A DNA stretch of 64,000 nucleotides, taken from assembly GCF_012516375.2 (NCBI RefSeq), contig NZ_CP051204.2:6200001-6264000 (forward strand), in the 5' to 3' direction. The stretch is from Chitinophaga oryzae (GTDB taxonomy: Bacteria > Bacteroidota > Bacteroidia > Chitinophagales > Chitinophagaceae). The translations under genes and the position numbers were made by a program. A model generated the notes under the pieces. It did no database searches. It was not told the DNA's origin and saw only the letters and a list, made by a program, of their open reading frames with translations. The stretch's first letter is position 1; the number at the start of each line of letters is the position of its first letter. Shown here one piece after another: positions 7,526 through 61,448 of this stretch.

Positions 7526-7698
7526 GATTTATGGATTTTGGGATTTACGGATTTTTTGATTTCGGGGACTTTAAGAGCGAATAAATACAGAATAAATAAA
7601 AAGATCGAAGCAATGTTAATCGCTTCGATCTTTTTATTTATCCGCTCTGTGGAAGTCCCCGAAATCAAAAAATCCGTAAATCCCAAAATCCGTAAATC
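7526..7698. repeat. Family-A long palindrome (GATTTNNG octamers), copy A1
   Basis: The outer arms 7526-7569 and 7655-7698 are inverted copies matching at 43 of 44 positions. Each arm is five 8-bp units beginning GATTT, with the variable bases in the same mirror order. Inside are a second inverted repeat (AGAGCG/CGCTCT) and a core stem ATAAAAAGATCGAAGC / GCTTCGATCTTTTTAT. It fills the gap between two convergent genes, the right arm reaching the stop codon of the 7697 gene. It probably acts as a bidirectional terminator, but the structure is far larger than a terminator needs. Confidence 0.9.
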
Positions 7699-10498
7699 AA
7701 TAACTGAACAGCTGTTGTAACGGCACAATAAAGTCCACCCTGTTCTGCGCATTGTCTACCGGATCTTTGTCAAACAGATGGCTGAACCGTACCCCACAGG
7801 TAAACGGCAGCGCATTGCCGATGCGCGTATCGAGGAAAAGTTCTGCTCCCGCGGAAGTGTAGCGGTTGTTCTTATTGTTCACAAAATCTCTTGCTACACT
7901 GTAATCATAGAACAGGTTGCCCCGGACACGGCTGAAATAGAGAATCTGCGCAAAGCCCCAGTCCGGGTAAGCCAGCGGCAGATGGTAGTTGGCCCCCAGC
8001 TTGTACACCCGGTCATAGAAAGGCGTATTGTAGCCCCTCGCATATACGAAGTTATCGGTGAAAGTATAGTTGAAATCCTGGTCGCGTTGCTGGAAAGCCG
8101 CCTGCAATACGATGTTGTGGTTACGGGAGAAGCCGGGAAGATATTGGTCTATGCGGCCATAGAACTGCGTAGCAAACGGGTTGCCCAGCGAGTGGTTGTA
8201 ATACAACGCCACATACTGCCCGAAATGGCTGTAGATGTTCTGTTTGGCTTTGATCCGCATATTATTGAAGAGCAACCGGCTGCTCAGGTATTGCAGGTTG
8301 TCGTTTTTGAATTTGAAGTTCCCCTGCGGATAACGGTGCAGGATATTATAATCGCTGCCGATCAACAGGCTGCGGCTGAACAATCCGGATGACAGGTTCA
8401 GCGGAACAGACAGTCCTGCATGCCAGGTCAGTTCATTCCAGTAAATACGGCCTAGGTTAGGTACTACTGTGTTGCGGTTGAAAATATAGTCCACGCCGGT
8501 GTTCAGGTAGGGAAGCCATCCTCCGAAGGTAAAGCTGGCGCTCACATCGGAGTAGCCTTCATTCCGGTTGTAGTTGTACCCGATGGTAGTATTGGTGGTA
8601 TTGAGGATATTCTCTCCCAGCAGCGAGATGCTGTAGTTGGGCTCATTAAAGGACGGTACCCAGCTGTGGAAATTGAACGGCCGGGTAAAAAGCCCGTATT
8701 TTCTTACCGGCAGGGAGTCGTTCGGTACGATGTCCAGTATGTTGCCGCTTTCTGCAGCTGCCGGCTGCAGCCATTTACTGTGCTGCGACTGTGCCACAGG
8801 CATTTCCTTCCAGGCTGTTTTCAGCGGTGTGCGGTACAGGCGGTAGCCGGCCGTGGTAAACTCGCTGAACACGAGGCTGTCCTGTTGCGGCGATGCGGCC
8901 ATATGCAGCGCGCTGTTGCCCCTGTCTGTGATGGCATATGTTTTCCGGTCAGACAACGTCATCGCGTATACGTTGTTTACGTCGCGGGTGGAGGCGGTGA
9001 AATACACGGTATCCCCCTGCACTGCCGGTATTCCCAGCACCGTATAACTGAAGGGCGTGAGCGGTGTGGCTTCGCCGGTCAGCAGTGATTGCTGTACGAG
9101 CGCCATTTCGCCGCGTTCATTGCGGACAGCGCTGATTACTGCCTTGTCATCTGCTGTGAAGCGGGGGAAGGTATAGTACCAGTTGTCGGGGTTGGGCAGC
9201 ACCTTCTCTATGTGGCCGGTGGCGGTGCTGATCACCTGCAGGCTGTAGTGCATGTCCGGGGTGATGGACGCCGCTACTATCTGTTGCCCGTCAGCGCTGA
9301 TATCCGGGGAGAAGAACTTACCGCGGGGAGATACTGTTTTCGTACTGCCGTTGGTGTTATCATGCACCCTGATGACGGAGAAATTTTTCCAGCCCCAGCG
9401 TGCGTCGAAGCGGGCTGCGGCCCATACAATGCGCTGGTTGCGGTAGCTGAAGAAATCATTGTAAACAATGCCCGGCCTTACCAGCAGCTCCTCGTCGCCA
9501 TTGCTGCGCAGGCGGTAAATGCCCGGTACTTTGTTATAAGCGTCTTTCAGCACGATCCATTCTCCGGGGCCTGCCGCATATACATATTTATAATTGGTAA
9601 CGGTGCGGCCGGAAGCGGTGACCGGTATTGCCGGCGTGGTGTCCGGACGGGCTGCGTATTGGTTCCACTGTGGCTGGTATTCCGCCAGCATAGCATTGTA
9701 GAAGGCCGTGATATTTTTACCGGTACGTCTTTTCAGGCTTTGGGAGAACGGATAAAAAACGCCGCGGTAGCGGACTGCGTCGCTGGTAACGCCCTTCCAG
9801 AAATCGTTGCCATAGTGGTTGCGGCCGTAAGTCGCCAGCAGGTAACCCAGGGGATAATGGTCCGGGACGAAATCGCGGTAGGAGCCATTACGGATTTTCA
9901 TGTAGGCATAGCGCTTATTTTCCAGTGACAGGGCGCGGAAGCCGTCGAAGAAAGCCGGCAGCCGGCCTCTCCCCTGCGGACTGAATACAGTTTCGTTGAT
10001 CACCGCGTCGCCTTCCCAGAACCAGTTGGGGACAGCGATATTGGTAGCCGCCGCCTGTCCCAGTTGGCCACCCAGCCAGGAAAACACTTTAGACACTCCC
10101 TGCCGGAAGTTCATGTTTTGCAATACGTGGCGGTATTCGTGGAGCGCCAGCTGCTCTGTCCAGTTGAGCGAGCCGAGGTCCTGCGATGTGGGAGACGGGG
10201 CGAGATAGAATTCGGAGCGGAAAGGTCCGAGCTGTACGTATCCGTTGGACTGCATCGTCTGGTTCTGTAATACGATGTCCACTTTCTTTTCCAGCGGACC
10301 GATGGAGGAGCGGGTATTTTTATTCAGCCAGGTAACGATGTTGGCTACACGTTCCCCTTGCCGGCCCATGCCTTTCGGGAAGATAACGCGGACGGTATCG
10401 GTATTGATCTGTTGCCATTTCAGGGAAGGAGGGTTTCCTCCGAACTGTTGGGCGGCGGCGGAAGTTGACAATAACAGGAGCCAGAAGTAGTGACGCAT
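7697..10498 (-). CDS. Envelope protein: gluzincin-like metallopeptidase + beta-propeller + barrel-like C-terminus
   Basis: 933 residues with a signal peptide (MRHYFWLLLLSTSAAAQ). The N-terminal domain has a zincin motif His120-Glu121-x-x-His124 (ALHEYRHVLQ) and a possible third ligand Glu162 in NWFWEGDAV, the spacing seen in gluzincins of the peptidase-MA type. From about 300 to 560 are TolB-like propeller repeats (for example FFSPDISADGQQIVAAS). From about 600 on there are alternating amphipathic strands ending in an aromatic residue (QQLFSY), as in outer-membrane barrels. I infer a surface or periplasm-facing protease anchored by a barrel; substrate unknown. It appears to be transcribed alone. 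Confidence 0.75.
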   Translation of the reverse strand: MRHYFWLLLLSTSAAAQQFGGNPPSLKWQQINTDTVRVIFPKGMGRQGERVANIVTWLNKNTRSSIGPLEKKVDIVLQNQTMQSNGYVQLGPFRSEFYLAPSPTSQDLGSLNWTEQLALHEYRHVLQNMNFRQGVSKVFSWLGGQLGQAAATNIAVPNWFWEGDAVINETVFSPQGRGRLPAFFDGFRALSLENKRYAYMKIRNGSYRDFVPDHYPLGYLLATYGRNHYGNDFWKGVTSDAVRYRGVFYPFSQSLKRRTGKNITAFYNAMLAEYQPQWNQYAARPDTTPAIPVTASGRTVTNYKYVYAAGPGEWIVLKDAYNKVPGIYRLRSNGDEELLVRPGIVYNDFFSYRNQRIVWAAARFDARWGWKNFSVIRVHDNTNGSTKTVSPRGKFFSPDISADGQQIVAASITPDMHYSLQVISTATGHIEKVLPNPDNWYYTFPRFTADDKAVISAVRNERGEMALVQQSLLTGEATPLTPFSYTVLGIPAVQGDTVYFTASTRDVNNVYAMTLSDRKTYAITDRGNSALHMAASPQQDSLVFSEFTTAGYRLYRTPLKTAWKEMPVAQSQHSKWLQPAAAESGNILDIVPNDSLPVRKYGLFTRPFNFHSWVPSFNEPNYSISLLGENILNTTNTTIGYNYNRNEGYSDVSASFTFGGWLPYLNTGVDYIFNRNTVVPNLGRIYWNELTWHAGLSVPLNLSSGLFSRSLLIGSDYNILHRYPQGNFKFKNDNLQYLSSRLLFNNMRIKAKQNIYSHFGQYVALYYNHSLGNPFATQFYGRIDQYLPGFSRNHNIVLQAAFQQRDQDFNYTFTDNFVYARGYNTPFYDRVYKLGANYHLPLAYPDWGFAQILYFSRVRGNLFYDYSVARDFVNNKNNRYTSAGAELFLDTRIGNALPFTCGVRFSHLFDKDPVDNAQNRVDFIVPLQQLFSY

Positions 10499-10611
10499 AA
10501 AAAAATACGGATTACGAATTGCGGTACTGAGCGCAAAACGAAAATATGTTTCTTTCTTAATATAAACATATTTAAATCCTGCGCGCTGTACCGCTGCTTC
10601 CGTATTTTATG

Positions 10612-12039
10612 CTAACATTCGCTGAGACTGATCGGGATGTTGACAGCGAGGCCGCCGTCTGATGTTTCCTTGTATTTGGAGTTCATGTCCAGGGCGGTGT
10701 CCCACATGGTTTTCACCACGGCGTCGAGGGAAACCTTGGCCAGTTCCGGGTTGCTTTGCAGCGCCAGCTGGGAAGCTGTGATGGCTTTGATGGCGCCCAT
10801 GGTGTTTCTTTCGATACAGGGGATCTGTACCAGTCCGCCGATGGGATCGCAGGTGAGGCCGAGGTGGTGTTCCATGGCTATTTCAGCGGCCATCAGCACT
10901 TGCCGTTGGGAGCCGCCGAGGCATTCTGTCAGCGCTGCTGCCGCCATGGCGGAGGAAACACCTATTTCCGCCTGGCATCCGCCCATAGCGGCGGAGATGG
11001 TAGAGCGTTTTTTGAAGATGCTGCCGATTTCGGAGGCGGTGAGCAGGAACTGCATGATCCTGTCGTCGTGCAGGCCGTCGCAGAAGGCGATGTAATACTG
11101 CAGTACGGCGGGTATCACGCCGGCGGCGCCGTTGGTGGGCGCTGTGACTACGCGGCCGAAAGAGGCATTTTCTTCATTGACGGCCAGGGCGAAGCAGCTC
11201 ACCCAGTCGAGCGTATAGGTGAAGTGTGCGCCTCCGGCGCGGATAGCTTCTATCCAGGAGTGATAGTCGGTGTAGGTGCGGCCTTTCAGCAATTTTTTAT
11301 TGAGTGCTGCGGCGCGGCGGGCTACTTTGAGGCCGCCCGGCAGTTCACCGGTAGTATGGCAGCCACGGTAGGTACATTCCTGCATCACGCGCCAGATATT
11401 GAGCACGCCGGCGCGGGTTTCCGCTTCCGGCCGCCAGGCCAGTTCATTTTCCATGACCAGTTCGGAGATGCTGAAGCCGGTCTTGATGCAGAACTGCAGC
11501 AGTTGCCGGGCCGTATCGATGGGGAAAGGCAGGTCTACCGAGGTGGTGCCGCCGCCTATTTCGCCTTCCTGTACCACGAAGCCGCCACCGATAGAGTAAT
11601 AGGTAGCTGCCTGTTTATCGCCATCGGCGAAGGTCACGAGGAATACGAGGGCATTGGGATGGAATGGCAGGGATTCTTCGAAGAGGAATTCGATGTCTTC
11701 CACCGGGTCAAAATCTATTTCATATTTACCTGCCAGCATCATTTTACGGGTGCGGCGCAGGTCATCTATTTTATCATTGATTTTATTAACGTCAAAGGTA
11801 ACGGGGTCATCGCCGCAGAGGCCCAGCAGCACGGCGATATCGGTGCCATGGCCGTGGCCGGTTTTGGCGAGGGAGCCGTAAAGCAGTACCTGTAAGCCGG
11901 TGACGGAAGAGAGTTTACCGGCGGCTTCCAATTCGTGGAGAAAGCGTTGGGCGGCCCTCCAGGGGCCTAAAGTATGGGAGCTGGACGGACCAATGCCAAT
12001 CTTAAAGATGTCGAAAACGGAGATACATTCGTGTGCCAC
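10612..12039 (-). CDS. sdaA: L-serine ammonia-lyase (iron-sulfur, single chain)
   Basis: Converts L-serine to pyruvate and ammonia using an oxygen-sensitive [4Fe-4S] cluster. At 475 residues it is the fused single-chain form, with the beta domain first ([20 protein letters not shown]) and the alpha domain second. Cluster cysteines appear in [29 protein letters not shown] and the nearby segment. The substrate loops APTNGAAG and [12 protein letters not shown] are intact. A terminator-like hairpin (12163-12186) separates it from the FKBP gene upstream, so it is probably transcribed alone. The name sdaA is used for the family and does not imply orthology to one of the E. coli paralogues. Confidence 0.95.
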
Positions 12040-12120
12040 TAATTATTGATTTACCTGTAAAAATAGAGCATTTTTATTTTCGGATTTTGGTATTTAACTA
12101 TTTCTTGATTTTGCTGATCC
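12040..12120. repeat. Fragment resembling family-A repeat arm
   Basis: Upstream of serine dehydratase the sequence TTTTCGGATTTTGGTATTTAACTATTTCTTGATTTTG keeps the 8-bp spacing of ATTT units seen in family A but has no opposite arm. It is probably a decayed fragment. Confidence 0.35.
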
Positions 12121-12162
12121 GGGGGAGGGAGGGAACGTTATCCGGCAGGGGTGATAACAATA

Positions 12163-12186
12163 AGGGCTGACCTTTCCGGCCAGCCC
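12163..12186 (-). terminator. Terminator-like hairpin after FKBP lipoprotein
   Basis: GGGCTG and CAGCCC flank a 12-base segment just downstream of the FKBP gene. On the minus strand the stem is followed by TTATTGTTAT, a weak U-tract. Confidence 0.55.
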
Positions 12187-12193
12187 CTGGGAA

Positions 12194-12670
12194 TTATTTT
12201 TTAACGAGATCTTTCAGTGTGACGTCGAAAAGCAGTACCGAGTTGGCCGGGATGCCGTTATTGGCGTAAGGGCCGTAGGCGTAGATGGAGGGCAGGAACA
12301 GCTTGATGCGTCCGCCTTTGCCGATCTTTGGGATGCCGATCGTCCAGCCGTCGATCACGCGGTTCAGGTCGAAGCTGGCGTTATCGTTGCTGTCGAAAGT
12401 TTTTCCGTCGAGGAAGGTACCGGCATATTTCACGGTCACGTTGCTGGTCGGAGTGGGTTTGTTGCCCAGGTCGCCGCTGTCTATGATTTGCCAGAAGATA
12501 CCGCGCGGATCGTGGGAGGCGGTGATATTATTGGTTTTCAGGTAATTGACAATAGTTACGCTGTCAGCATCAAATTGTTTAATGGCATCGTACTGCGGTG
12601 TATTGTCTTTTTTAGAGCAGGCTGCCAGTAGTGCGAGGCCTAACCCTCCCAGTAAAAAAACTTTCTTCAT
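12194..12670 (-). CDS. FKBP-type peptidyl-prolyl isomerase lipoprotein (first of pair)
   Basis: 158 residues. The signal peptide MKKVFLLGGLGLALLAAC has lipobox LAAC, so it is envelope-anchored. The FKBP domain (about 65-158) shows VTVKYAGTFLDGKTFDSN, VIDGWTIGIPKIGKGGRIKLFLPS and the closing AYG...IPANSVLLFDVTLKDL. It should catalyse proline isomerisation during folding of exported proteins. The next gene upstream (12709-13191) is a paralogue with the same layout and a 38-base gap, so the two form a tandem pair and probably one transcript. The N-terminal spacer (25-60) is longer than in minimal FKBPs. Confidence 0.9.
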   Translation of the reverse strand: MKKVFLLGGLGLALLAACSKKDNTPQYDAIKQFDADSVTIVNYLKTNNITASHDPRGIFWQIIDSGDLGNKPTPTSNVTVKYAGTFLDGKTFDSNDNASFDLNRVIDGWTIGIPKIGKGGRIKLFLPSIYAYGPYANNGIPANSVLLFDVTLKDLVKK

Positions 12671-12708
12671 TCCGTTGATATTTGGATTTTATAGTTACAC
12701 AAAAAAGT

Positions 12709-13191
12709 CTATTTGATGTCCACCAGTTCCACCTCGGAGATGAGGATGGCGTTGGGTGGTATGATGTCGGGGACGCCCATGCTGCCGAAAGCGAGGTATG
12801 GCGGGATATACATCCGTATTTTGCCTCCTTTGGAGATTTTGGCCAGTCCTATCTGCCAGGCTGGGATATGATTTTTCAGTTCCCGGTTGTTGAAGTTGGT
12901 GACATCGAAAGAGGCGTCTACGATGGTACCGTCAATCAGTTGATTGGAATAGTTGACATACACAACGGATGCAGGTTTCACGAAATGGACGCTGTCTCCG
13001 GGCTTATAAATGCGATAGTACAGTCCGGAGGGGTCGCGTACGGCGATTTCGTTATGGGCAAAGAGATATTGTTGGATGCGTGTATCTGTTTCGGCGGCGT
13101 CCATCGTGATCATGTCGTCTGCTTTTTTGGAGCAGGAGAGCAGGGTGAACACCGGCAGGCAGGCCAGGGCTATTTTCAGCAATAACTTCAT
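12709..13191 (-). CDS. FKBP-type peptidyl-prolyl isomerase lipoprotein (second of pair)
   Basis: 160 residues with a lipoprotein signal (MKLLLKIALACLPVFTLLSC, Cys20). The FKBP fold is recognisable in VYVNYSNQLIDGTIVDASFD, IPAWQIGLAKISKGGKIRMYIPPYLAFGS and IPPNAILISEVELVDI. Compared with its neighbour the flap carries HIPAWQIGL in place of DGWTIGI, so the active-site floor may differ and activity could be weaker. It lies directly downstream of groL but is separated by a strong terminator (13262-13299), so it probably starts its own transcript with the second FKBP gene. Confidence 0.88.
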   Translation of the reverse strand: MKLLLKIALACLPVFTLLSCSKKADDMITMDAAETDTRIQQYLFAHNEIAVRDPSGLYYRIYKPGDSVHFVKPASVVYVNYSNQLIDGTIVDASFDVTNFNNRELKNHIPAWQIGLAKISKGGKIRMYIPPYLAFGSMGVPDIIPPNAILISEVELVDIK

Positions 13192-13261
13192 TCAGTTGTG
13201 AGTTGATTTAATTACCAGAGTTATCAGTGTAACGCAATACCGGCGGTAAAGTTACAAGATA

Positions 13262-13299
13262 AAAAAACTCCCGCAGAAAGGCCTGCGGGAGTTTCCTTT
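13262..13299 (-). terminator. Intrinsic terminator of groS-groL
   Basis: Stem AAACTCCCGCAG pairs with CTGCGGGAGTTT around AAAGGC, with a run of seven T on the minus strand after the stem. It lies about 20 bases after the groL stop codon. Confidence 0.92.
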
Positions 13300-13316
13300 T
13301 ATGGTAATAAGACTGA

Positions 13317-14960
<1,644 letters not shown>

Positions 14961-15010
14961 CTAAGGATATTTAAAAGATTAGTTTTTACAATAACACAAA
15001 CCGGCTGTCA

Positions 15011-15292: not shown

Positions 15293-15334
15293 AGTAGTTT
15301 TTATTTAAAGAAAGTAGTTTGAATTGTGAATGCA

Positions 15335-15374: not shown

Positions 15375-15455
15375 AATTGCAGATTGTAGATGCAATACAG
15401 GCTTTAATCACTGACAAATCATGACAAGCAACAGGAAAAAATGACAGGAAAACAT

Positions 15456-15590
15456 TTAGGAATTTAGATATTTACGGATTCTGTGATTTAATTCCGGCTT
15501 TGTTTTTCCGGTCTTTTGTAGCTCTGCAGCCGTACATTCGCAAAATTCCCAAATCCCAAAATCCCAAAATATCTAAATTTCGGGATTTTT
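15456..15590. repeat. Family-A palindrome, degenerate copy A2
   Basis: The left arm has 8-bp spaced ATTT units (ATTTAGGA, ATTTAGAT, ATTTACGG, ATTCTGTG). The right arm has the opposite-sense CCCAAAATATCTAAATTT. A 13-14 bp segment (AATTTAGATATTT) is still exactly inverted between the arms. The centre has TTCCGG and CTCTGCAG but no clean core hairpin. Unusually, it lies between divergent genes (groS and nusB), where a terminator role makes no sense. Confidence 0.6.
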
Positions 15591-15593
15591 GTC

Positions 15594-15601: not shown

Positions 15602-15629
15602 CGCCCTTATACCAGTTCTTTTTTATACG

Positions 15630-16596: not shown

Positions 16597-17049
16597 ATGA
16601 GAACACTGCTCTTTTTCCTTACCTGCGGCACCCTTTTAGTGGCTGCCTGTAACAATAACCAGCCGGCGAACGATCAAACCGCTGCTGCCGGTCAGCCCGC
16701 TGCCTCCGGCAATACTGCCGAAGCCGGTAAAGCATCTGATCTTACTTTTGAAGAAAAGGTGCATAACTTTGGGGACATCACCCAGGGTGAAAAGGTGGAA
16801 TATTCCTTTAAATTTACCAACACCGGTAAAAATCCCCTGGTGATCGAGGATGCAATCTCCAGCTGTGGCTGCACGGTGCCTGAATGGCCCAAACAGCCGA
16901 TCAAACCGGGAGAATCCGGCTATATGAAGGTGATATTCGACAGTCATGGGAAATCCGGCTATACCGAGAAAGAAATATCCATCAGGACCAACAATGGCGG
17001 TGGTTATCAGGTAGGCCCCAAGATCCAGTGTAATATTGTCGCAAAATAA
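16597..17049 (+). CDS. DUF1573 lipoprotein
   Basis: 150 residues from MRTLLFFLTCGTLLVAAC, a lipoprotein signal with lipobox VAAC. An Ala/Gly/Gln-rich linker follows (about 22-48), then one DUF1573 domain (about 50-150): FEEKVHNFGDITQGEKVEYSF, FTNTGKNPLVIEDAISSCGCT and KPGESGYMKVIFDSHGKSG. DUF1573 is an ASPM/SPD-2/Hydin-like beta-sandwich of unknown role, very common in this phylum. The ISSCGCT cysteine pair is a conserved family feature. A longer in-frame start at 16513 would overlap nusB and bury the signal peptide, so it is rejected. A -7-like TATTTTTA lies at 16571. Confidence 0.88.
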   Translation: MRTLLFFLTCGTLLVAACNNNQPANDQTAAAGQPAASGNTAEAGKASDLTFEEKVHNFGDITQGEKVEYSFKFTNTGKNPLVIEDAISSCGCTVPEWPKQPIKPGESGYMKVIFDSHGKSGYTEKEISIRTNNGGGYQVGPKIQCNIVAK

Positions 17050-23266: not shown

Positions 23267-23992
23267 ATGCTGATCAAAAAAAATCGTGTTTGGGCGATAG
23301 CCGCCCTGTTGGGAGGAGTAATCGGATTTTCATCCTGTCTGAAACAGAGCGACCCGACCCCGCAAAGGATGAACTATACCGGTGCTATTATCAATGGCGC
23401 GTACCTGCCTTCCAGCCTGGACATCTTTAACAATGGCACCAAAATGAACACCAGCGCCTATAAGACCAGCGCCTCCGCCCCTTTCCTGGACCTGCCGGGA
23501 ATACACACCTTCTCCTTCCGGAACCTGAATGGCACCGGCCTGGACTCTGTTACCCAACAGTTTGACTCTCTCCGGTACTACACCATCATTACCTATAACG
23601 ACGCCAGCAAAAAATTTGTGTCCCAGCTGATCAGGGAAGATTTTACCTCACTGTCTACCAGCAAGGTGAACTTCCGTTTCCTGAACCTGAGCCCCAATGC
23701 CGGCCCGGTGGACCTGTACATTAACGGTAAAAAGGTAGCGGAGAACCAGCCATTCCAAATCAACGCAGCCTGGAGATCCGATGATCCGTATAACAGCACT
23801 GTAGAATACTACGTAACTCCTGCCGGCTCCACCACCCAGCTGGTAAAAGGTACTTCCCGTCAGTCTGCCGGTTCCACCCAGGTACCGTTCCAACCGGGAT
23901 ATGCCTACACCATTTACCTGGCTGGCGCCAAAGACAGCACCGGTGACAACAAACTGCAGTTGTACTACCTGTCTCATACTTCCAGCTACTAG
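23267..23992 (+). CDS. DUF4397 lipoprotein
   Basis: 241 residues. The N-terminus MLIKKNRVWAIAALLGGVIG ends in the lipobox SSC, giving an anchored envelope protein. DUF4397 (about 130-230) is recognisable by VNFRFLNLSPNAGPVDLYINGKKV and VPFQPGYAYTIYLAGAKDS; it is a beta-sandwich resembling adhesin-like domains. A second, weaker similar repeat may occupy residues 35-125. The function is unknown. It shares a likely transcript with the serine hydrolase upstream and ends at a palindromic repeat that includes a strong terminator. Confidence 0.82.
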   Translation: MLIKKNRVWAIAALLGGVIGFSSCLKQSDPTPQRMNYTGAIINGAYLPSSLDIFNNGTKMNTSAYKTSASAPFLDLPGIHTFSFRNLNGTGLDSVTQQFDSLRYYTIITYNDASKKFVSQLIREDFTSLSTSKVNFRFLNLSPNAGPVDLYINGKKVAENQPFQINAAWRSDDPYNSTVEYYVTPAGSTTQLVKGTSRQSAGSTQVPFQPGYAYTIYLAGAKDSTGDNKLQLYYLSHTSSY

Positions 23993-24129
23993 GATTTTGG
24001 GATTTACGGATTTTGAGATTTTGAGATTTCGTAAACTAATGATAGAGAAGACCGAAGCGGATGAATCATCCGCTTCGGTCTTTTTTTCGCAAACGTCAAA
24101 AAATCCTCAAATCGCAAAATCCCTGAATT
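23993..24129. repeat. Family-A palindrome, copy A3, with terminator core
   Basis: The left arm consists of 8-bp units GATTTTGG, GATTTACG, GATTTTGA, GATTTTGA, GATTTCGT. The right arm is an imperfect opposite-sense copy (TCAAAAAATCCTCAAATCGC...). The core (24044-24089) is a perfect stem AAGACCGAAGCGGATGA / TCATCCGCTTCGGTCTT followed by T7, a strong terminator. Here the flanking genes are in tandem, not convergent. Confidence 0.85.
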
Positions 24130-25362: not shown

Positions 25363-25471
25363 AATTACGAATTACGAATTACGAATGAGAAGACGCTCTA
25401 TGGAAAGGTTAGTAAGTAACCGTGCTGTAAAACAATTCCCATTCGTAATTCGTAATTCGTAATTCGTAATT
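25363..25471. repeat. Family-B palindrome (ATTACGA heptamers), copy B1
   Basis: The left arm is three ATTACGA units (25363-25386). The right arm is four opposite-sense TAATTCG units (25441-25471). The core of about 54 bases contains GGTTAGTAAGTAAC, shared in variant form with the other B copies. It lies between two genes in tandem and begins two bases after the aminotransferase stop codon. Confidence 0.88.
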
Positions 25472-28619: not shown

Positions 28620-28746
28620 CAATTACGAATTACAAATTACGAATTACGAATTAGAGAATCTGCTGATGAAAAGGTTATTAAGTAATGGCCCCATAAGGGA
28701 ACCTTTAATTCGTAATTCGTAATTCGTAATTCGTAATTTGTAATTC
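28620..28746. repeat. Family-B palindrome, copy B2
   Basis: The left arm (28620-28653) and right arm (28707-28746) are ATTACGA heptamers in opposite sense. Both arms contain one variant unit, ATTACAA, offset by one repeat. The core contains AAAGGTTATTAAGTAATGG and a closing AACCTTT. It begins directly after the mutase stop codon and precedes the methyltransferase promoter. Confidence 0.9.
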
Positions 28747-28758
28747 ATATTAGATATT

Positions 28759-29673: not shown

Positions 29674-29863
29674 TCACGCGCAAAGGCGTCACGCAAAGGC
29701 GCTAAGCAGCAAAGAGCGCAAAGAGAATAAATAAGAAACAAAGAAAGCAAAGGAGCGAAGACCAATTCGATTTGATCTTCGCTCCTTTGCTTTCTTACTA
29801 ATCTTATTAAAACTTTGCGCTCTTTGCTGCTTAGCGCCTTTGCGTGACGCCTTTGCGTGATTA
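29671..29863. repeat. Family-C palindrome (GCAAAGNC octamers), copy C1
   Basis: The arms of about 50 bp (GCAAAGGC, GCTAAGCA, GCAAAGAGC...) are inverted copies differing by a 2-base insertion. The core is a 19-bp stem GAAAGCAAAGGAGCGAAGA and its complement around 14 bases. The palindrome runs stop codon to stop codon: the TAA of the methyltransferase and the TAA of the convergent S46 peptidase are themselves part of the arms. Confidence 0.9.
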
Positions 29864-41037: not shown

Positions 41038-41152
41038 AATAATTACGAATTACGAATTACGAATTACGAATGGAGGGCCCACTTCCGGGGAGGTTACTTA
41101 GTAACTTTCCCCAAAAAAGAGCCCTCCATTCGTAATTCGTAATTCGTAATTG
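41038..41152. repeat. Family-B palindrome, copy B3
   Basis: The left arm is four ATTACGA units (41041-41071). The right arm is three opposite-sense units (41127-41152). The core is strongly palindromic: GGAGGGC/GCCCTCC outside and GGGGAGGTTACTTAGTAACTTTCCCC nested inside. It lies upstream of lpdA and directly after the lolA stop codon, between tandem genes. Confidence 0.9.
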
Positions 41153-48255: not shown

Positions 48256-48258
48256 TCT

Positions 48259-48408
48259 CGCAAAGGCGCTAAGCAGCAAAGACGCAAAGAATAAAATAAG
48301 CGAGCAGAGAAAGCAAAGGAGCGGAGATCAAAATTTGATCTCCGCTCCTTTGCTTTCTTATTTAAACTTAAAAAAATCTTTGCGTCTTTGCTGCTTAGCG
48401 CCTTTGCG
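48259..48408. repeat. Family-C palindrome, copy C2
   Basis: The arms (48259-48290 and 48377-48408) are more than 30 bp inverted, made of 8-bp units GCAAAGGC, GCTAAGCA, GCAAAGAC, GCAAAGAA. The core (about 48307-48357) is a perfect 25-bp stem with a single central base, so almost no loop. It lies between convergent dcd and the PKD-like gene, starting 4 bases after the dcd stop. Confidence 0.9.
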
Positions 48409-48424
48409 TGATATCTCTGCGTGA

Positions 48425-55450: not shown

Positions 55451-55490
55451 TACATTTAGGTTGATTTATATTATAGATGATGATCCAGGC

Positions 55491-55507
55491 CCTGTTTCCC
55501 ACAGGGC
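55491..55507 (-). promoter_or_regulatory. Hairpin in susC leader
   Basis: GCCCTG and CAGGGC flank TTTCCCA within the short gap between fecR and susC. It could be part of the sigma-dependent promoter region or a leader structure; the sequence alone does not decide. Confidence 0.35.
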
Positions 55508-55514
55508 TTGCTCA

Positions 55515-55547
55515 TAAAACGAACATGCTACAACATGTTCGTTTTTT
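55515..55547 (-). terminator. Terminator between fecR and susC
   Basis: AAAACGAACATG pairs with CATGTTCGTTTT around CTACAA; it overlaps the fecR stop codon. It should separate the sigma/FecR transcript from the transporter operon, so susC is probably started by its own (ECF-dependent) promoter in the 60 bases left. Confidence 0.8.
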
Positions 55548-56667
55548 ATTTGCCTTGTTTTACCATGATGGTACGTTTTGGTTGATCTATTACAAAGTGT
55601 ACATCTGTCAGTTGTTCAATTAAAGTCAGCACCTGAGCGACGGAGGGTGATTTTTCGATGTTTCCGCCGATGCGTAGTTGTTGTAATGATTTATTTTCAA
55701 AGTTGACGGTATAATCGTATTCGCGGCCCAGTCTGATCATGATATCCTCCAGGCTTTCATTGTCAAATACCAGGAGGCCTTCTTTCCAGGCGGTGAACTG
55801 TTCGGCATCAACGCTGGCCACGGTCATATTACCCTGCCGGCAAACCGCCTGCTGACCGGGAGACAGCTCTTTGACGAGCGGGCCGGCGTCTACCTTTACC
55901 TTACCGGAAACGAGGGTGGTGAGTGTGTTGTTGGTATAGGCGTTGATGTTAAACTCCGTTCCCAGAACCGTCACTTTCATGTCGCGTACCTTTACGAGGA
56001 AAGGTTTGGCAGCCATAGGCGCCGTCTCAAAGCAGGCCTCCCCTTCCAGTTCCACTTCGCGGGCATCGCCGGAAAAGGCCACCGGAAAACGCAGCCGCGA
56101 ATCAGCGTTGAGCCATACCCGTGTGCCGTCGGCGAGGGTCACTTTATAGGTTTGTCCGCGCGGTACCACGAGGGTGTTAAATACAGGAGCGCCGCCTGTC
56201 CGGGCTGCCTGGTAGGCCACACCTGCTTTACCGGCGGTAATGCGGGTGCCGTCTGCTTCTTTGAGCTGCGTGACGGAGTCCAGTACTACCGTAGCGCCGC
56301 TGCCGGTAATCAGTTGTATTTGCTGATTGTTCCCGGCAGCATGAGCCACTACGCTGGTGGTTGGTTTATGACGCGGTGGTTTCAACAGGAATACCGCTCC
56401 TCCTGCAATCAACCCGGTGACGACCGCCGCTGCGGCCACCCGGAACCAATTAATGGAATATCTTTTCCGTTGTGTATGTTCTATCCTGGCCGCCACTTCC
56501 TGCCAGGCTGCTGTGGTGTCCAGTGATGCTATTTCCTGCCAGCCTTCTGCCGCGTCCCTGATGTCGAAATACGCCTCCTCTTCCGGCGAAAGCGGTCCTT
56601 CCTGCCGGGGTTGTTCCAGTTTGGCTGCAAGCTTCTCCCACTCGGGGGATGGTTGGTTTTCTGTCAT
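55546..56667 (-). CDS. FecR-type anti-sigma factor
   Basis: 373 residues. A cytoplasmic N-terminal segment (1-74) has DUF4880-like helices. The single membrane helix is about 75-95 (FRVAAAAVVTGLIAGGAVFLL). The periplasmic FecR domain (about 160-275) reads VPRGQTYKVTLADGTRVWLNADSRLRFP and GEACFETAPMAAKPFLVKVRD. A DUF4974 C-terminal domain (about 300-372) is present. It would hold the ECF sigma factor until the STN domain of SusC signals ligand. It lies 27 bases after the sigma gene. Confidence 0.95.
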   Translation of the reverse strand: MTENQPSPEWEKLAAKLEQPRQEGPLSPEEEAYFDIRDAAEGWQEIASLDTTAAWQEVAARIEHTQRKRYSINWFRVAAAAVVTGLIAGGAVFLLKPPRHKPTTSVVAHAAGNNQQIQLITGSGATVVLDSVTQLKEADGTRITAGKAGVAYQAARTGGAPVFNTLVVPRGQTYKVTLADGTRVWLNADSRLRFPVAFSGDAREVELEGEACFETAPMAAKPFLVKVRDMKVTVLGTEFNINAYTNNTLTTLVSGKVKVDAGPLVKELSPGQQAVCRQGNMTVASVDAEQFTAWKEGLLVFDNESLEDIMIRLGREYDYTVNFENKSLQQLRIGGNIEKSPSVAQVLTLIEQLTDVHFVIDQPKRTIMVKQGK

Positions 56668-56694
56668 AGCTTCTGATGATTAGACAGTGAGGTA

Positions 56695-57273
56695 TTAAAA
56701 AAGGGTAGGTACGACGGGAAACTTTTTTTCAAAAAAATACAGCATGTTCAGTAAAATGCTGATCCACAGCGGCATAAAAGCTTCATTCCGCAGAAAAACA
56801 TAGGCCGCCTTGATATGAAATTTAACGGTGTTGATGGAGATATTAAGTTCGCGGGCTATATCCGCATACTTTTTATTATCGGCGGCGCTCATGAGGAAAA
56901 CGCGGCGGCGCTGCTCCGGCATACAGTCGATAGCATGCGATAACCGTTGATAAAACTGTTCCCTGTCCGCATGGCCGGTATCCTGGTCATCCGGCGGCAT
57001 GGCGGCAAAAAGCTGCCGGTGTTTGTCCTGTACTTCCTGCCGGGCAATGTAGTTGAGGCTTCTGTTCTTTACCGCGCGGGCAGCATAGCCTTCAAAAGGC
57101 CCCCTTAACTGCAGGGTATGCTGTGTTTCCCAGAACTTTACAAAGAATTCCTGCACAATATCCTTGGCAACATCCTTGTCTTTCACCACACTATATGCCA
57201 GCAGGGCTAATGGTTTGAAATGTTCTTTAAACAACAATTCAAATTGCTCCAACGAAAAAGGAGTCTCCTGCAT
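56695..57273 (-). CDS. ECF RNA polymerase sigma factor (FecI-like)
   Basis: 192 residues. Region 2 contains LLFKEHFKPLALLAYSVVKDKDVAKDIVQEFFVKFWE (about 13-50). Region 4 has LSHAIDCMPEQRRRVFLMSAADNKKYADIARELNISINTVKFHIKAAY (about 112-158). The C-terminal 35 residues form a hydrophobic tail (PLWISILLNMLYFFEKKFPVV) that may bring it to the membrane near FecR. It is first gene of the FecI-FecR unit. No operator is visible in the 120 bases upstream. Confidence 0.95.
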   Translation of the reverse strand: MQETPFSLEQFELLFKEHFKPLALLAYSVVKDKDVAKDIVQEFFVKFWETQHTLQLRGPFEGYAARAVKNRSLNYIARQEVQDKHRQLFAAMPPDDQDTGHADREQFYQRLSHAIDCMPEQRRRVFLMSAADNKKYADIARELNISINTVKFHIKAAYVFLRNEAFMPLWISILLNMLYFFEKKFPVVPTLF

Positions 57274-57393
57274 ACGTTGTCAAATGGTTGGCCCTTTAAA
57301 TGCTTATTAAACAATATGGGTAAAACAAAATGGATATATCTCACAAGCGCGGGCCAAGATAATCAATCCATAATTTTTTACCCATACTATTTT

Positions 57394-58500
57394 TTAGCGC
57401 ACATGATAAATCACTTCATGGGCTTCTGTCAGCGTGGGCACTTCCAGTTTGCTGATCAGCCGCTCCATGGCTGCCGCCGGCACGATGTGTTCGCGCCTGC
57501 CGTTTTGCTGCAGCAGCCGGGCCGCCGGCACTTCCACATATACGATGGTAACAGCTGCATGATATGTAAAGAACAGGCTGGTCAACTGCTCCCGCATCTG
57601 GCGGGTGATGTTGGTAGCATTCCAAACGAAGGAACGTCCTTTGCGCAGGTACTCCCTCGCCTGCTCTTTGGCGGCCTGTATTACGGTGCCGTTGCCGCTT
57701 TTGTCCGTCGGCGCTATTTTCATGGCCCTCCTGATATCATCGAGGGAGATGACCGGCCAGTCTTTATACTGCTGCTGTACGAAAGTGTCTTTACCGGCGC
57801 CGGGCAAGCCGCTCATCATGATCACCTGTGTCTGTGGCTGCTCGTACGGCACATAGTCCGGCGACACTTCCTCCTTCAGCAGGTAATTCATCCGTGCTTC
57901 CGCATTGGCGAAAGCGCGGGGCACGCCCCAGCACTGGTTATCGCGGCACAGCTCTTCGAAGCAGTCCAGCCGGTACAGCAGGTCAGCCTGGTCATCGCAG
58001 ATGCGGCCCAGCGCATCGGCGCGGGCCAGCAGTGCCAGCAGGCGGGTATCCACTTCCAGGCTGGCCGTGATCACCGCTTTCTGCGGATCTTTTTTATCGA
58101 ACACCCACAGTGGCAAGCCGTGGTAGCGCACCAGTTTAGCGATCGTTTCCCGTATAAAAAAGGGCGTGGGTATGTCGCGGTAGAGTATCTGCCGCGCACG
58201 CATCTCCCCTTTGCGGGCGTGCCCGGCGGAAGTGATCCTGCCGTCGGGCTCCACCACGGTGGTGGTATATTTTTCCACGTCATGCAGCAAGGCCGCAGCC
58301 CACATCATTTCCTGTTCCTGAGCCGGCAGCTCCTGGTAAAGCGGTTGCTGATGCAGCTGCTCCAGCACCATCTGCGTGTGTACGGCCACGTTACCTTCAG
58401 CATGATGACGGGCATCCTGCGGCACGGAAGCCATTACCCGCACCCAATCGAACTGCTGTTCGAGAGCTGCCCAGTCTTTATTATCTGTTATCTGCCACAT
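57394..58500 (-). CDS. HD-Pnk: HD-domain 2',3'-phosphoesterase + polynucleotide 5'-kinase
   Basis: 368 residues with two domains. The HD metal-dependent phosphohydrolase (about 30-190) has His41, His73-Asp74 (ALLHDVEKYTT), His94, His127 and Asp162 (RADALGR). The P-loop kinase (about 223-368) has GLPGAGKDTF (231-240), DDIRR (254-258), WNATN (293-297) and a conserved Arg-rich lid (GRREH). This matches the HD-Pnk family, whose Runella slithyformis member heals RNA or DNA ends by removing 2',3'-cyclic phosphates and phosphorylating 5'-OH ends. It overlaps the RNA ligase gene by 20 bases, so both come from one transcript. Confidence 0.9.
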   Translation of the reverse strand: MWQITDNKDWAALEQQFDWVRVMASVPQDARHHAEGNVAVHTQMVLEQLHQQPLYQELPAQEQEMMWAAALLHDVEKYTTTVVEPDGRITSAGHARKGEMRARQILYRDIPTPFFIRETIAKLVRYHGLPLWVFDKKDPQKAVITASLEVDTRLLALLARADALGRICDDQADLLYRLDCFEELCRDNQCWGVPRAFANAEARMNYLLKEEVSPDYVPYEQPQTQVIMMSGLPGAGKDTFVQQQYKDWPVISLDDIRRAMKIAPTDKSGNGTVIQAAKEQAREYLRKGRSFVWNATNITRQMREQLTSLFFTYHAAVTIVYVEVPAARLLQQNGRREHIVPAAAMERLISKLEVPTLTEAHEVIYHVR

Positions 58501-59194
58501 AATTACCTCCTTCGTAGTTAAGCCGGGCCCTGCGCCAGTGGCGGGTCCAGTGCTGATCGGTTTTCACATGCCCCTTGCGGACATATTTAAACACGTTGTG
58601 TGAAAATTCGCTGACCGGATAACCGGCAGCATTACGGGTTACGATGCCCTCCATGATGGTTGGCTCACCGCTGAAAGCGTCGTGCGGATCAAAAGCGCCA
58701 CGGCCGCCGACGAGCGACAGCGTGTCGCGCTCAAAGCCAGTCCGTACAGCCGGCGGCGTTATAGCGCTTACCACCGGCACCACCGGGAGGTCCAGCATGG
58801 CGGCGTAAAAGCAGGTCTCCTCCCAGCTCAGCCACCGGTCATGCTCCCGGACGCCAAACACATAAAAGTGATGGTCCAGGTTTTTATATTCGATAGAATG
58901 TACGGCGTACAGGTTCTCCAGGAAAATCTCCAGGTCACCGAGGTCATTTTTAATGCTTTGCCAGTACCGGCGGATACTTTCGGTCCACGGTGACGTAGTG
59001 GGCGCCACATGAGAGCGTGCAAACACGCCGTGACGGGAAAGGCAGTTATTCTCCCCGTCCAGTTTTTCCGTATGTATCAGCTGCGGTATGTTTACCAGCC
59101 AGTCCCAGTAATCATGCTGGATACGGTCATCGCTGGTAGTTCCCGGTGAGAACGGATAATGATAGGTACGGCCATATTTTTGGGAAATCGCCAT
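58481..59194 (-). CDS. RNA ligase family protein
   Basis: 237 residues with all nucleotidyltransferase motifs of ATP-dependent RNA/DNA ligases: motif I EKLDGEN (Lys44 takes the AMP, Asp46-Gly47), Ia RSHV (Arg60), III YVFGV (111-115), IV MEGIVTRN (Glu182-Gly183) and V VFKYVRKGH (Lys203, Lys207). It lacks the extra C-terminal domain of longer ligases. It should seal 5'-phosphate and 3'-OH RNA ends prepared by the adjacent HD-Pnk. Upstream is a degenerate B palindrome, and the DUF885 gene diverges. Confidence 0.9.
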   Translation of the reverse strand: MAISQKYGRTYHYPFSPGTTSDDRIQHDYWDWLVNIPQLIHTEKLDGENNCLSRHGVFARSHVAPTTSPWTESIRRYWQSIKNDLGDLEIFLENLYAVHSIEYKNLDHHFYVFGVREHDRWLSWEETCFYAAMLDLPVVPVVSAITPPAVRTGFERDTLSLVGGRGAFDPHDAFSGEPTIMEGIVTRNAAGYPVSEFSHNVFKYVRKGHVKTDQHWTRHWRRARLNYEGGNYVADNR

Positions 59195-59201
59195 AATAAT
59201 G

Positions 59202-59333
59202 AAATTACGAATTACGCATTACGAATTACGAATGAGGGCTGTTTATATGCAGGCGCGCATATGAACCTGCCTGACAGTGAACCATATGGTAATCGGGCAG
59301 TCGGCCCTCATGGTATTCCAGTAACGTAATCAG
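59202..59333. repeat. Family-B palindrome, degenerate copy B4
   Basis: The left arm has four heptamers (ATTACGA, ATTACGC, ATTACGA, ATTACGA). The right arm has decayed to TAACGTAATCAGG-like sequence. GAGGGC/GCCCTC and ACCATATGGT remain in the core. It sits between divergent genes upstream of the RNA ligase operon. Confidence 0.7.
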
Positions 59334-59556
59334 GTTAGACAAAAAAATCACAGGCCTGTTCCGGAACGGAACGGCGAAGAAAAAGAGGATTAATATGCCT
59401 GTGAAATTACATGGCGCAAGGTTTTATCTGTTTTTACAAATGAGCCGCAAAGATAGGGAACTTTTTTATTTTCTGTTTCCGCTTATCCTCTTATTCCTGT
59501 CCCGTACGCCATAATTCTTTATATTAGGTGCCGACAATCAACAAATCTCCACCATC
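59334..59556. other. Intergenic region upstream of DUF885 gene
   Basis: 223 bases with no open frame of coding character. No exact TAnnTTTG box was found. The sequence CCTGTTCCGGAACGGAACGG (near 59353) is partly self-complementary and could be a regulatory site. Confidence 0.4.
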
Positions 59557-61308
59557 ATGAGAAAGATACTTCTTTGCGCCACGGCGGCTGCGGCCATGAT
59601 TGCCTGTAACAACGGCAACAGTACCCAGGGCGGTGGTCAGGCCGACAGTGTGCTCAACAAAGCATTCCAGGCCTACCAGGAACGTTTTATCGACCAGCTT
59701 TGGAAAGAAAACCCCGATTGGGCCACCGGTGTGGGCTATCACAAGTACGACTCCGTACTGATTGTGCCCGACAGCGCCGCAGCGCAGGCCAGTCTTGCCT
59801 TTGCGCAACAGCAGCTGGACTCTCTCAGAAGTTATGAGCTGAGCAAACTGACAGATGCCAACCAAACCGATTATCAGCTGATAGAAAACTATCTGAAGTC
59901 GGTACAGTGGAGCATCAAAGAACTGAAGAGCAACGAGTGGGACCCGTCTTCCTTTAACGTGAGCAACACGTTCGCCTTTATTCTCAACGAGAACTACGCA
60001 CCGCTGGAAACAAGGCTGCGTGCTTTCTCCGCCAGGCTGGGCAATGTGCCGGCATATTACGAAGCCGCCAAAAAACAGATCAAGGACCCGGTACCGGAGC
60101 TCACCTCGCTGGCGGCCGACCAGAACACCGGCGGCTTGTCCGTGTTTGAAAAAGACTTTGCAGACTCCCTGCAAAAGACCAGCATCGGCGCAGACGAGAA
60201 GAAGGCGATGATTGCCCGTGCGCAGACAGCGGTGAAGGCCATCAAAGACTACGCCGCATGGCTGAAAGCACTGAAGCCCGCCCATCCGCGCAGCTTCCGC
60301 CTGGGCCAGCCTCTATATGACCAGAAATTCAACTACAGCATACAGTCTTCTTTCTCCGCTTCGCAGATCTACGATTCTGCAGTAGCGCGCAAAGCTTATG
60401 TGCATGGAGAAATGGCCAGGATCAGCCGGCAGCTGTGGCCCAAGTATTTCGGCAGCCAGCCTGTGCCTGCGGATTCACTGGAGCTGATCAGCCGCATGAT
60501 CGACACCTTATCGCTCAAACATGTGAAACCGGAAGAGTTCCAGACGGCCATTGAAAAACAGCTGCCGGAGCTGATTGCTTTCATCAAGGAAAAAGACCTG
60601 CTGTACATCGATCCGTCCAAACCACTGGTCGTACGCAAAGAGCCTGCGTATATGGCCGGCGTGGCCGGCGCTTCCATCAGCGCCCCCGGCCCGTATGACA
60701 AGGGCGGCAACACCTACTACAACGTAGGCAGCCTCGAAGGATGGCCGAAAGACAAAGCAGAAAGTTATCTCCGCGAATACAATCATTATATCCTGCAGAT
60801 ACTGGACATCCACGAAGCTATTCCCGGCCATTATACCCAGCTGGTATATGCCAACCAGTCTCCCAGCCTGATCAAATCCCTGATGGGCAACGGCGCTATG
60901 ATAGAAGGCTGGGCGGTGTACACTGAACAGATGATGCTGGAAAACGGCTATGGCAACAACGAGCCTGAAATGTGGCTGATGTGGTACAAATGGAACCTGC
61001 GGGCAGTATGCAATACCATCCTTGATTACAGCGTACATGTGAAAAACATGAGCCGCGAAGACGCCATTCACCTGCTCACGAAAGAAGCGTTCCAGCAGCA
61101 GGCGGAAGCAGAAGGCAAATGGAAAAGGGTAAGCGTGACCAGCGTGCAGCTCACCAGCTACTACACCGGTTACAAAGAAATCATCGACCTGCGGGAGGCC
61201 TACAAACAGAAGATGGGCAAAGAATACAACCTGAAAGCGTTCAACGAAAAGTTCCTGAGCTATGGCAGCGCCCCGGTGAAATATATCCGGCAGCTGATGC
61301 TCAAATAG
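59557..61308 (+). CDS. DUF885 family metallopeptidase lipoprotein
   Basis: 583 residues with a lipoprotein signal (MRKILLCATAAAAMIAC). DUF885 enzymes are zinc carboxypeptidase-like or M32-like proteins. The zinc motif is His419-Glu420-x-x-x-x-His425 in IHEAIPGHYTQLVYA, with the Glu in GAMIEGWAVYTEQMM. The rest is helical. The long N-terminal half (about 30-360) supports the fold. It probably processes peptides in the periplasm. It is transcribed alone and ends at palindrome A4. The substrate is not inferable. Confidence 0.9.
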   Translation: MRKILLCATAAAAMIACNNGNSTQGGGQADSVLNKAFQAYQERFIDQLWKENPDWATGVGYHKYDSVLIVPDSAAAQASLAFAQQQLDSLRSYELSKLTDANQTDYQLIENYLKSVQWSIKELKSNEWDPSSFNVSNTFAFILNENYAPLETRLRAFSARLGNVPAYYEAAKKQIKDPVPELTSLAADQNTGGLSVFEKDFADSLQKTSIGADEKKAMIARAQTAVKAIKDYAAWLKALKPAHPRSFRLGQPLYDQKFNYSIQSSFSASQIYDSAVARKAYVHGEMARISRQLWPKYFGSQPVPADSLELISRMIDTLSLKHVKPEEFQTAIEKQLPELIAFIKEKDLLYIDPSKPLVVRKEPAYMAGVAGASISAPGPYDKGGNTYYNVGSLEGWPKDKAESYLREYNHYILQILDIHEAIPGHYTQLVYANQSPSLIKSLMGNGAMIEGWAVYTEQMMLENGYGNNEPEMWLMWYKWNLRAVCNTILDYSVHVKNMSREDAIHLLTKEAFQQQAEAEGKWKRVSVTSVQLTSYYTGYKEIIDLREAYKQKMGKEYNLKAFNEKFLSYGSAPVKYIRQLMLK

Positions 61309-61314
61309 ATTTAG

Positions 61315-61448
61315 GGATTTTTTGATTTACGATTTTTTGATTTCGTTTTTTGATAAAACAAGAAGACCGAAGCTCTTTAAAGTTGCTTCGGTCTTTTCTA
61401 TTTGCAATAATCAAAAAAAAATCAAAAAATCGTAAATCAAAAAATCTC
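61315..61448. repeat. Family-A palindrome, copy A4
   Basis: The arms 61315-61354 and 61410-61448 are near-perfect inverted copies of GATTT-type octamers. The core stem is AAGACCGAAGC (61363-61373) paired with GCTTCGGTCTT (61385-61395), the same sequence as in copy A3. It lies between convergent genes, starting 6 bases after the DUF885 stop codon. Confidence 0.9.

What the first reader, a model, noticed from the sequence alone, without database searches (positions are those of the whole stretch)
7526..61448. Three unrelated sequence families share one architecture
Families A, B and C have no sequence in common, yet each consists of a short-period tandem arm (8, 7 and 8 bp), an independent core hairpin and the mirrored arm. 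About ten such elements occur in 64 kb, only between genes. Convergence of structure without sequence suggests a general process or function, such as DNA packaging, supercoil relief, a replication or recombination barrier, or spread by a fold-back single-strand intermediate.
Basis: partly seen in the sequence, partly recalled or inferred. Interest (0 to 1): 0.78.

Follow-up and report, generated by a model that had tools for sequence, protein, structure and literature searches.

The report
Palindromes sharing arms with small genes
Many palindromes at gene ends in this bacterium look like gene-less copies of a kind of hairpin element that, in its full form, carries one of two small conserved genes with no known transposase, which suggests an overlooked way for hairpin DNA to spread.

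Summary
The window holds 11 tandem-armed palindromes (5 A, 4 B, 2 C; 8 strong, 3 decayed). In 848 kb of the genome, 46 of 56 long palindromes are A, B or C; shuffles of a 464-kb part gave none. Periodicity is clear for A and B, loose for C.

What they are: the genome's two four-helix-bundle genes (PF05635, the 23S rRNA intervening-sequence protein family) lie inside B and A arms. Its one GxxExxY gene (PF13366, predicted nuclease) lies inside C arms. The window elements look like gene-less satellites of these. This generalises: 57 of 75 tested four-helix-bundle loci in named genomes have such arms against 0 of 284 shifted controls, 49 of 57 with period 7. Unit sequence changes between species; period follows the protein lineage. 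B-rich genomes usually have the gene (16 of 18, against 6 of 42), but phylogenetic contrasts give only 9:2, p=0.065, and most of those genes carry other arms.

Best reading: an IVS-like, REPIN-like mobile family whose partner proteins are not known transposases. Movement is inferred, not shown.

The parts
1763..1835 (.). Family A element, short and decayed; next to the stop codon (1837) of the minus-strand ORF 1837-2694
   Evidence: weak fold z -1.7
7518..7698 (.). Family A element: 8-bp GATTTnnn arms round a core hairpin; fills the gap between the stop codons of convergent ORFs ending at 7519 (+) and 7697 (-)
   Evidence: z -11.8
15450..15590 (.). Family A element, decayed (arms 78% complementary)
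   Evidence: z -2.1
23992..24121 (.). Family A element with core hairpin GACCGAAGCGG...CCGCTTCGGTC followed by a T run; the same site holds A, B, C or a bare hairpin in the 9 of 20 congeners that could be aligned there
   Evidence: z -6.4
25363..25471 (.). Family B element (AATTACG arms), 1 bp after a stop codon
   Evidence: z -6.3
28621..28755 (.). Family B element, 2 bp after the stop of a methylmalonyl-CoA mutase gene; site empty or nearly so in several congeners
   Evidence: z -7.7
29676..29862 (.). Family C element filling the gap between two convergent stop codons; other families or a plain hairpin at this site in congeners
   Evidence: z -11.8
41041..41151 (.). Family B element, 2 bp from the stop of a minus-strand LolA-like gene
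   Evidence: z -8.6
48256..48411 (.). Family C element directly after the stop (48255) of a dCTP deaminase-like gene
   Evidence: z -9.7
59203..59330 (.). Family B element with one decayed arm
   Evidence: z -2.4
61307..61455 (.). Family A element filling the gap between convergent stop codons (61308 and 61457)
   Evidence: z -10.4

Best explanation
The window elements are gene-less satellites of a family of fold-back mobile elements. The full-length element is a hairpin whose arms are short-period repeats and whose loop carries one small gene: a four-helix-bundle protein (families A and B) or a GxxExxY protein (family C). In the satellites a short core, usually a hairpin, takes the gene's place. 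Shown: shared arms, and by eye a shared inner stem in two genomes; gene-bearing and gene-less copies in one genome; turnover at orthologous sites; placement next to stop codons; purifying selection on the genes. Inferred: the protein recognises the repeat period and acts in trans on single-stranded hairpins, and copies are placed at hairpin or terminator sites at gene ends during replication or repair. Related four-helix-bundle crystal entries have five chains, so the protein may be a five-fold ring that reads about 7 nt per subunit; that is speculation. Single-stranded DNA is preferred to an RNA route because no RVT_1 reverse transcriptase was found in two element-rich genomes.
For: Own genome: 2 of 2 PF05635 genes and 1 of 1 PF13366 gene lie in B, A and C arms. 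Same phylum, best-scoring 30 loci each plus the own ones: flanking inverted repeats at 23 of 32 four-helix-bundle loci against 0 of 128 offset controls, GxxExxY 22 of 31 against 3 of 124. Named genomes: 57 of 75 tested against 0 of 284, best period 7 in 49 of 57. Satellites share a 10-mer with gene arms of their own genome in 88 of 140, against 340 of 2539 comparisons with other genomes; over 19 genomes Wilcoxon p=0.005 (63 of 102 against 233 of 2040 with stricter settings). B hits >=10 in 18 genomes, 16 with PF05635; <10 in 42, 6 with it. C hits >=5 in 10 genomes, 9 with PF13366; <5 in 50, 10 with it, 11 counting a weak match. Orthologous sites in congeners are empty or hold other families or a plain hairpin. 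47 of 70 gene-3'-end sides lie within 10 bp of the stop codon. dN below dS in all 10 ortholog pairs with finite dS, of 12 computed. Period labels on the protein tree need 5 changes; 2000 shuffles never fewer than 11.
Against: No movement was observed and no target duplication or excision product was found. Independent contrasts are weak: 9 up, 2 down for B (p=0.065); 4 up, 3 down for C. Of the 16 B-rich genomes with PF05635, only G000, G191, G200 and, by hit position, G176 show a gene with true B arms; G204 and G194 have AATTAAG-like arms; the other fetched genes carry other arms or, in G187, none that I could define. G191 and G187 are listed with a stop inside the gene. G190 and G206 have B copies but no PF05635 match. 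The per-genome sign test on arm matching is not significant (12 up, 6 down, p=0.24) and G000, G200 and G184 supply 70 of the 88 matches. The gene-bearing form sits at conserved loci, so it hardly moves. Neither protein is a known transposase. C arms are only loosely periodic. Because of the weak arm specificity found on rechecking I lowered confidence from 0.70 to 0.65.
Confidence: 0.65

Rival explanations
1. Host-serving 3'-end signals: the palindromes are bidirectional transcription terminators or mRNA 3'-end stabilisers, and the two small proteins are RNA-binding regulators of that set. Selection, not movement, keeps them at gene ends.
For: Median distance to stop codons 3 bp; 22 of 54 placed elements between convergent genes, against 71 of 362 intergenic gaps of at least 60 bp; several family A cores end in T runs; plain terminator-like hairpins occupy the same site in some congeners; genes under purifying selection and at conserved loci.
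Against: Sites are empty or hold unrelated families in congeners. Of the five elements in the scanned 20 kb only the C core at 29745-29792 scored as terminator-like, and the scan as a whole (24 sites) did not exceed shuffles (20.7, sd 5.5). The GxxExxY copy lies inside the nuoF-nuoG gene pair.
Confidence: 0.18
2. Classical REPIN/RAYT elements moved by the genome's Y1 (HUH) transposase.
For: Extragenic hairpin satellites in many copies with a low-copy partner gene, as described for REPINs (PMC3116915); one PF01797 gene in this genome.
Against: G200, with 842 B hits, has no PF01797 match; 8 of 18 B-rich genomes have one. The Y1 gene here is followed by a palindrome outside families A, B and C.
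Confidence: 0.05
3. Local growth: the arms arise in place by slippage and palindrome extension at terminator hairpins and are homogenised by gene conversion, without transposition.
For: Own arms resemble each other more than those of other copies (biased because palindromes were found by arm matching); a long B array in G190.
Against: It does not predict the flanking arms at 57 of 75 four-helix-bundle loci or the link between family copy number and gene presence.
Confidence: 0.1

Closest known systems
23S rRNA intervening sequences (IVS) encoding S23p, e.g. that of Coxiella burnetii (PMC4990558: passages and the Discussion section seen)
   Same: Same protein family (PF05635); an ORF in the loop of a stem formed by terminal inverted repeats; Coxiella's has tandem heptamers upstream of the ORF; called selfish; function and origin described as unclear
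   Different: Here the examined copies lie between protein genes, not in rRNA; many gene-less satellites; genes under purifying selection, whereas the Coxiella ORF is reported to be decaying
REPIN/RAYT (PMC3116915: abstract, outline and passages seen)
   Same: Many short extragenic hairpins plus a low-copy gene bordered by the same repeats; several families per genome
   Different: Partner is a four-helix-bundle or GxxExxY protein, not a Y1 transposase; arms are tandem repeats of 7-9 bp with changing unit sequence
MITEs (recalled; titles and abstract beginnings in the listing only)
   Same: Short non-coding inverted-repeat elements related to a gene-bearing form
   Different: The gene-bearing forms found carry no known transposase; no target duplication seen at the one site with clean empty alleles
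Avd of diversity-generating retroelements (PMC10053308: passages seen)
   Same: PF05635 is reported there to resemble Avd
   Different: No reverse transcriptase among the flanking genes identified at L001 and L002; no RVT_1 match in B-rich G171 and G186

Membership tests
23S rRNA intervening sequence (IVS) | ORF of the PF05635 family in the loop of an inverted-repeat stem | tested here: met
   L001 and L002; 57 of 75 loci elsewhere. Not met by family C, whose gene is PF13366
23S rRNA intervening sequence (IVS) | Located inside a 23S rRNA gene | tested here: not met
   Own copies only: L001 between secA and deoC, L002 between hemF and hemB, L033 between nuoF and nuoG. No Rfam family at gathering score in the window. 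The loci from other genomes were not searched for rRNA
23S rRNA intervening sequence (IVS) | RNase III excision of the stem | not testable with these tools
   needs RNA
REPIN/RAYT | Extragenic hairpin repeats in many copies | tested here: met
REPIN/RAYT | Partner is a Y1 (RAYT) transposase bordered by the same repeats | tested here: not met
   Bordered genes found are PF05635 and PF13366; no PF01797 match in G200 with 842 B hits
MITE | Terminal inverted repeats shared with a transposase-bearing element | tested here: inconclusive
   The gene-bearing forms found encode PF05635 or PF13366 proteins; no exhaustive search for a transposase gene with these arms was made
MITE | Target-site duplication on insertion | tested here: inconclusive
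   One site with clean empty alleles (28621) shows no evident duplication
Diversity-generating retroelement (Avd) | Linked reverse transcriptase, template and variable repeats | tested here: not met
   L001 and L002 are flanked by secA, deoC, hemF and hemB; no RVT_1 match in B-rich G171 and G186. Template and variable repeats were not searched for

The most novel reading that the evidence does not exclude
A distinct class of hairpin mobile element without a transposase. A ring-forming four-helix-bundle protein (or, in a parallel branch, a GxxExxY nuclease-like protein) recognises a repeat period rather than a sequence, so the unit sequence drifts freely while the architecture is held. Gene-less satellites, hundreds in some genomes, are maintained in trans by a vertically inherited gene, and rRNA intervening sequences are one specialised outpost of this class.
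Probability: 0.3. Interest if true: 0.9.

Novelty: new variant of a known kind. Interest (0 to 1): 0.77.

Why it matters
[quoted passage not shown] Linking them, and GxxExxY proteins, to tandem-armed palindromes and to satellite populations gives a testable function (maintenance or movement of hairpin elements), a common frame for rRNA intervening sequences and dispersed palindromes, and an explanation of how unrelated repeat families in one genome can share one architecture.

Tried and rejected
Superseded work: searches (wrong reading frame chosen; minus-strand loci not turned) were replaced; their numbers are not used. One search was repeated with more sample and looser settings (arm score 14 instead of 16, arms extended 10 bp outward, loops under 300 bp); both results are given. 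The own-against-foreign arm comparison is biased because the palindromes were found by arm matching, and is not relied on.

Rejected ideas: Y1/RAYT-driven REPINs; dependence on an RVT_1 reverse transcriptase (47 of 60 genomes match, B-rich G171 and G186 do not); a known Rfam RNA (0 hits at gathering score in the window). Gene-less satellites are not abundant everywhere: samples of 140, 140 and 120 kb from G033, G124 and G065 gave 4 (one with the gene), 0 and 1 palindromes. Several of those stretches were chosen to hold PF05635 genes and only one such gene was found within a palindrome, so the scan misses weaker arms. C copy number against GxxExxY does not survive phylogenetic contrasts (4:3). 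The GxxExxY profile found only a chance-level match to a Cas4-family nuclease in the PDB (E 0.47).

Literature: searches (open-licence PMC only; lists capped; judged from titles, abstract beginnings and counts) showed no paper linking four-helix-bundle or GxxExxY genes to such palindromes. Subscription journals and preprints were not searched.
Full report
THE OBSERVATION. Searches confirm three families of tandem-armed palindromes in the window: five A (8-bp GATTTnnn), four B (7-bp AATTACG) and two C (about 8-bp CGCAAAGn). Eight fold with z of -6.3 to -11.8; three (1763, 15450, 59203) are short or decayed. A de novo scan (arms of at least 24 bp, at least 80% complementary, span under 900 bp) of the window plus 20 stretches of 20 kb found 28 palindromes against 0 in Markov shuffles. 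In 848 kb, about a tenth of the 8.36-Mb genome and including two 12-kb stretches chosen for a Y1 and an RVT_1 gene, there are 56, of which 46 are A, B or C; by extrapolation roughly 450 genome-wide. C arms are only loosely periodic (median self-match 0.495, shuffled arms 0.43 at the median and 0.59 at the 95th percentile). The window is about twice as dense as the rest (8 in 64 kb against 48 in 784 kb).

WHERE THEY SIT. With simple longest-ORF gene calls, which misplace some genes (for example beside 48256), 47 of 70 gene-3'-end sides are within 10 bp of the stop codon (median 3 bp); the 38 sides facing a start codon have a median of 33 bp. Of 54 placed elements, 22 are between convergent genes, 26 tandem and 6 divergent; all intergenic gaps of at least 60 bp divide 71, 200 and 91.

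GENE-BEARING COPIES. The genome has two PF05635 matches. One lies between secA and deoC inside B arms, the other between hemF and hemB inside A arms. It has one PF13366 match (GxxExxY, TIGR04256), between nuoF and nuoG inside C arms. So each family in the window has a gene-bearing relative elsewhere in the genome.

GENERALITY. In the same phylum PF05635 occurs in 116 of 148 sampled genomes and PF13366 in 75 of 148. For the 30 best-scoring loci of each family plus the own loci, I aligned 200 bp upstream with the reverse complement of 200 bp downstream. Scores of 16 or more: 23 of 32 four-helix-bundle loci against 0 of 128 offset controls, best period 7 (17) or 8 (6); GxxExxY 22 of 31 against 3 of 124, best period 8-10 in 16 of 22, with units that by eye have the form CRCRRAG. 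A second set, the best 80 of 579 relatives found in genome contigs, gave 57 of 75 tested (5 dropped for short flanks) against 0 of 284 controls, with period 7 in 49 of 57. Three of the positives carry titles outside Bacteroidota (Opitutae L337, Clostridia L345, Syntrophobacterales L368; all metagenome-assembled). The threshold of 16 was set.

PERIOD FOLLOWS THE PROTEIN, SEQUENCE DOES NOT. Of 130 four-helix-bundle loci examined, 98 passed the arm and ORF filters and 92 had a period of 7, 8 or 9. On the protein tree the two labels (7, or 8-9) need 5 changes; 2000 shuffles never needed fewer than 11. At the hemF locus the unit is GATTT-like in G000, G158 and G176 and TTATTT-like in G200 and G201, yet all five have period 8; three further orthologs did not pass. 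At the secA locus the four that passed have period 7 with AATTACG, AATTGCG or AATTAAG units; two did not pass. Arms and gene are physically linked, so common descent contributes to this clustering.

SATELLITES AND THEIR OWN GENOME'S GENE. In 19 genomes of the genus with both data, 88 of 140 gene-less palindromes share a 10-mer with arms of gene-bearing elements of the same genome, against 340 of 2539 comparisons with other genomes (Fisher 1e-38; Wilcoxon over genomes p=0.005; sign test 12 up, 6 down, p=0.24). With stricter settings and less sample it was 63 of 102 against 233 of 2040. The pooled figure is carried by G000 (41 of 53), G200 (20 of 20) and G184 (9 of 10); of the 8 genomes with at least 5 palindromes, own exceeds others in 7 (not in G186, 0 of 5). 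By eye, G200 and G184 share the inner stem as well.

COPY NUMBER. B 17-mer hits of at least 10: 18 of 60 genomes, 16 with a PF05635 match; fewer than 10: 42, 6 with one, two of these being fragments (Fisher 5.8e-8). C pattern hits of at least 5: 10 genomes, 9 with PF13366; fewer: 50, 10 with it, not counting a weak 24-bit match in G202 (Fisher 5e-5). Crossed comparisons are weaker: B with GxxExxY p=0.07, C with PF05635 p=0.03. Independent contrasts on a one-marker tree give 9 up and 2 down for B (p=0.065) and 4 up and 3 down for C. This is suggestive, not proof. Among the 16, only G000, G191, G200 and, by hit position, G176 show a gene with true B arms; G204 and G194 have AATTAAG-like arms; the other fetched genes carry other arms or, in G187, none that I could define. 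In G191 and G187 the gene is listed with an internal stop. Not every PF05635 locus was fetched. So gene presence, not arm identity, is what tracks B number in most of these genomes.

TURNOVER. At four window sites compared with 20 congeners (9 alignable at 23992; all 20 at the others, a few only as overlapping flanks), the same gap may hold A, B, C, a TTAGC 7-mer family, TTATTT 8-mers, GATT 9-mers, a bare terminator-like hairpin or nothing. At 28621 the gap is 15 bp in close relative G176 and 1-3 bp in seven more distant species. By eye, B arms enclose an A-like core in G200 (L121). A scan of the 20 congener stretches (400 kb) found 42 palindromes with arms of at least 22 bp against 0 in shuffles.

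THE GENES ARE KEPT. The gene-bearing loci have orthologous surroundings in 5 (secA), 7 (hemF) and 10 (nuoF) further genomes. dN is below dS in all 10 pairs with finite dS of 12 computed, for example 0.036 against 0.27 and 0.020 against 0.54; two pairs were saturated. Four-helix-bundle profiles match PDB entries 2RLD and 2GSC, each with five chains. GxxExxY proteins keep invariant D67, E77 and K79 in 23 aligned sequences, consistent with a PD-(D/E)XK nuclease.

MECHANISM. Shown: anatomy, gene-bearing and gene-less forms, turnover, placement, selection. Inferred: action in trans on hairpins and placement at gene ends. No PF01797 match exists in the richest genome (G200, 842 B hits), no RVT_1 match in B-rich G171 and G186, and no PF13366 match in G200, so none of these seems required for B, as far as the models detect. 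The five-fold ring reading 7-nt units is speculation.

COMPARISON. It works most like REPIN/RAYT (PMC3116915) and looks most like rRNA intervening sequences (PMC4990558), but fails a defining feature of each: no Y1 partner, and own copies not inside 23S rRNA. I therefore file it as a new variant of a known kind rather than as a member of either.

Noticed in passing
L283:5449-6127 (own genome C1:5971449-5972127): The single PF01797 (Y1) gene is followed by a 48-bp perfect palindrome (CCCAGGGCTCACGCCCTGGG...) unrelated to A, B and C; it may be a separate REP/RAYT system with few copies.
   Followed up: partly
G190:C3:541429-541543: A continuous array of the B heptamer (15 hits at every 7 bp), over half of the 28 B hits of a genome without a PF05635 match.
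   Followed up: no
G163:C12:26750-27553: Five C-pattern hits repeat at 191-199-bp spacing, as if whole elements were tandemly duplicated.
   Followed up: no
L162 (G156): A four-helix-bundle gene flanked on each side by about ten or more copies of AATTATG, far longer arms than usual.
   Followed up: no
L121:11165-11307 and 16874-16981 (G200): B arms enclosing an A-like core hairpin, suggesting exchange of arms and cores.
   Followed up: partly
L192 (G196): At the nuoF-nuoG locus the C-like arms run in the opposite orientation to the gene compared with G000.
   Followed up: no
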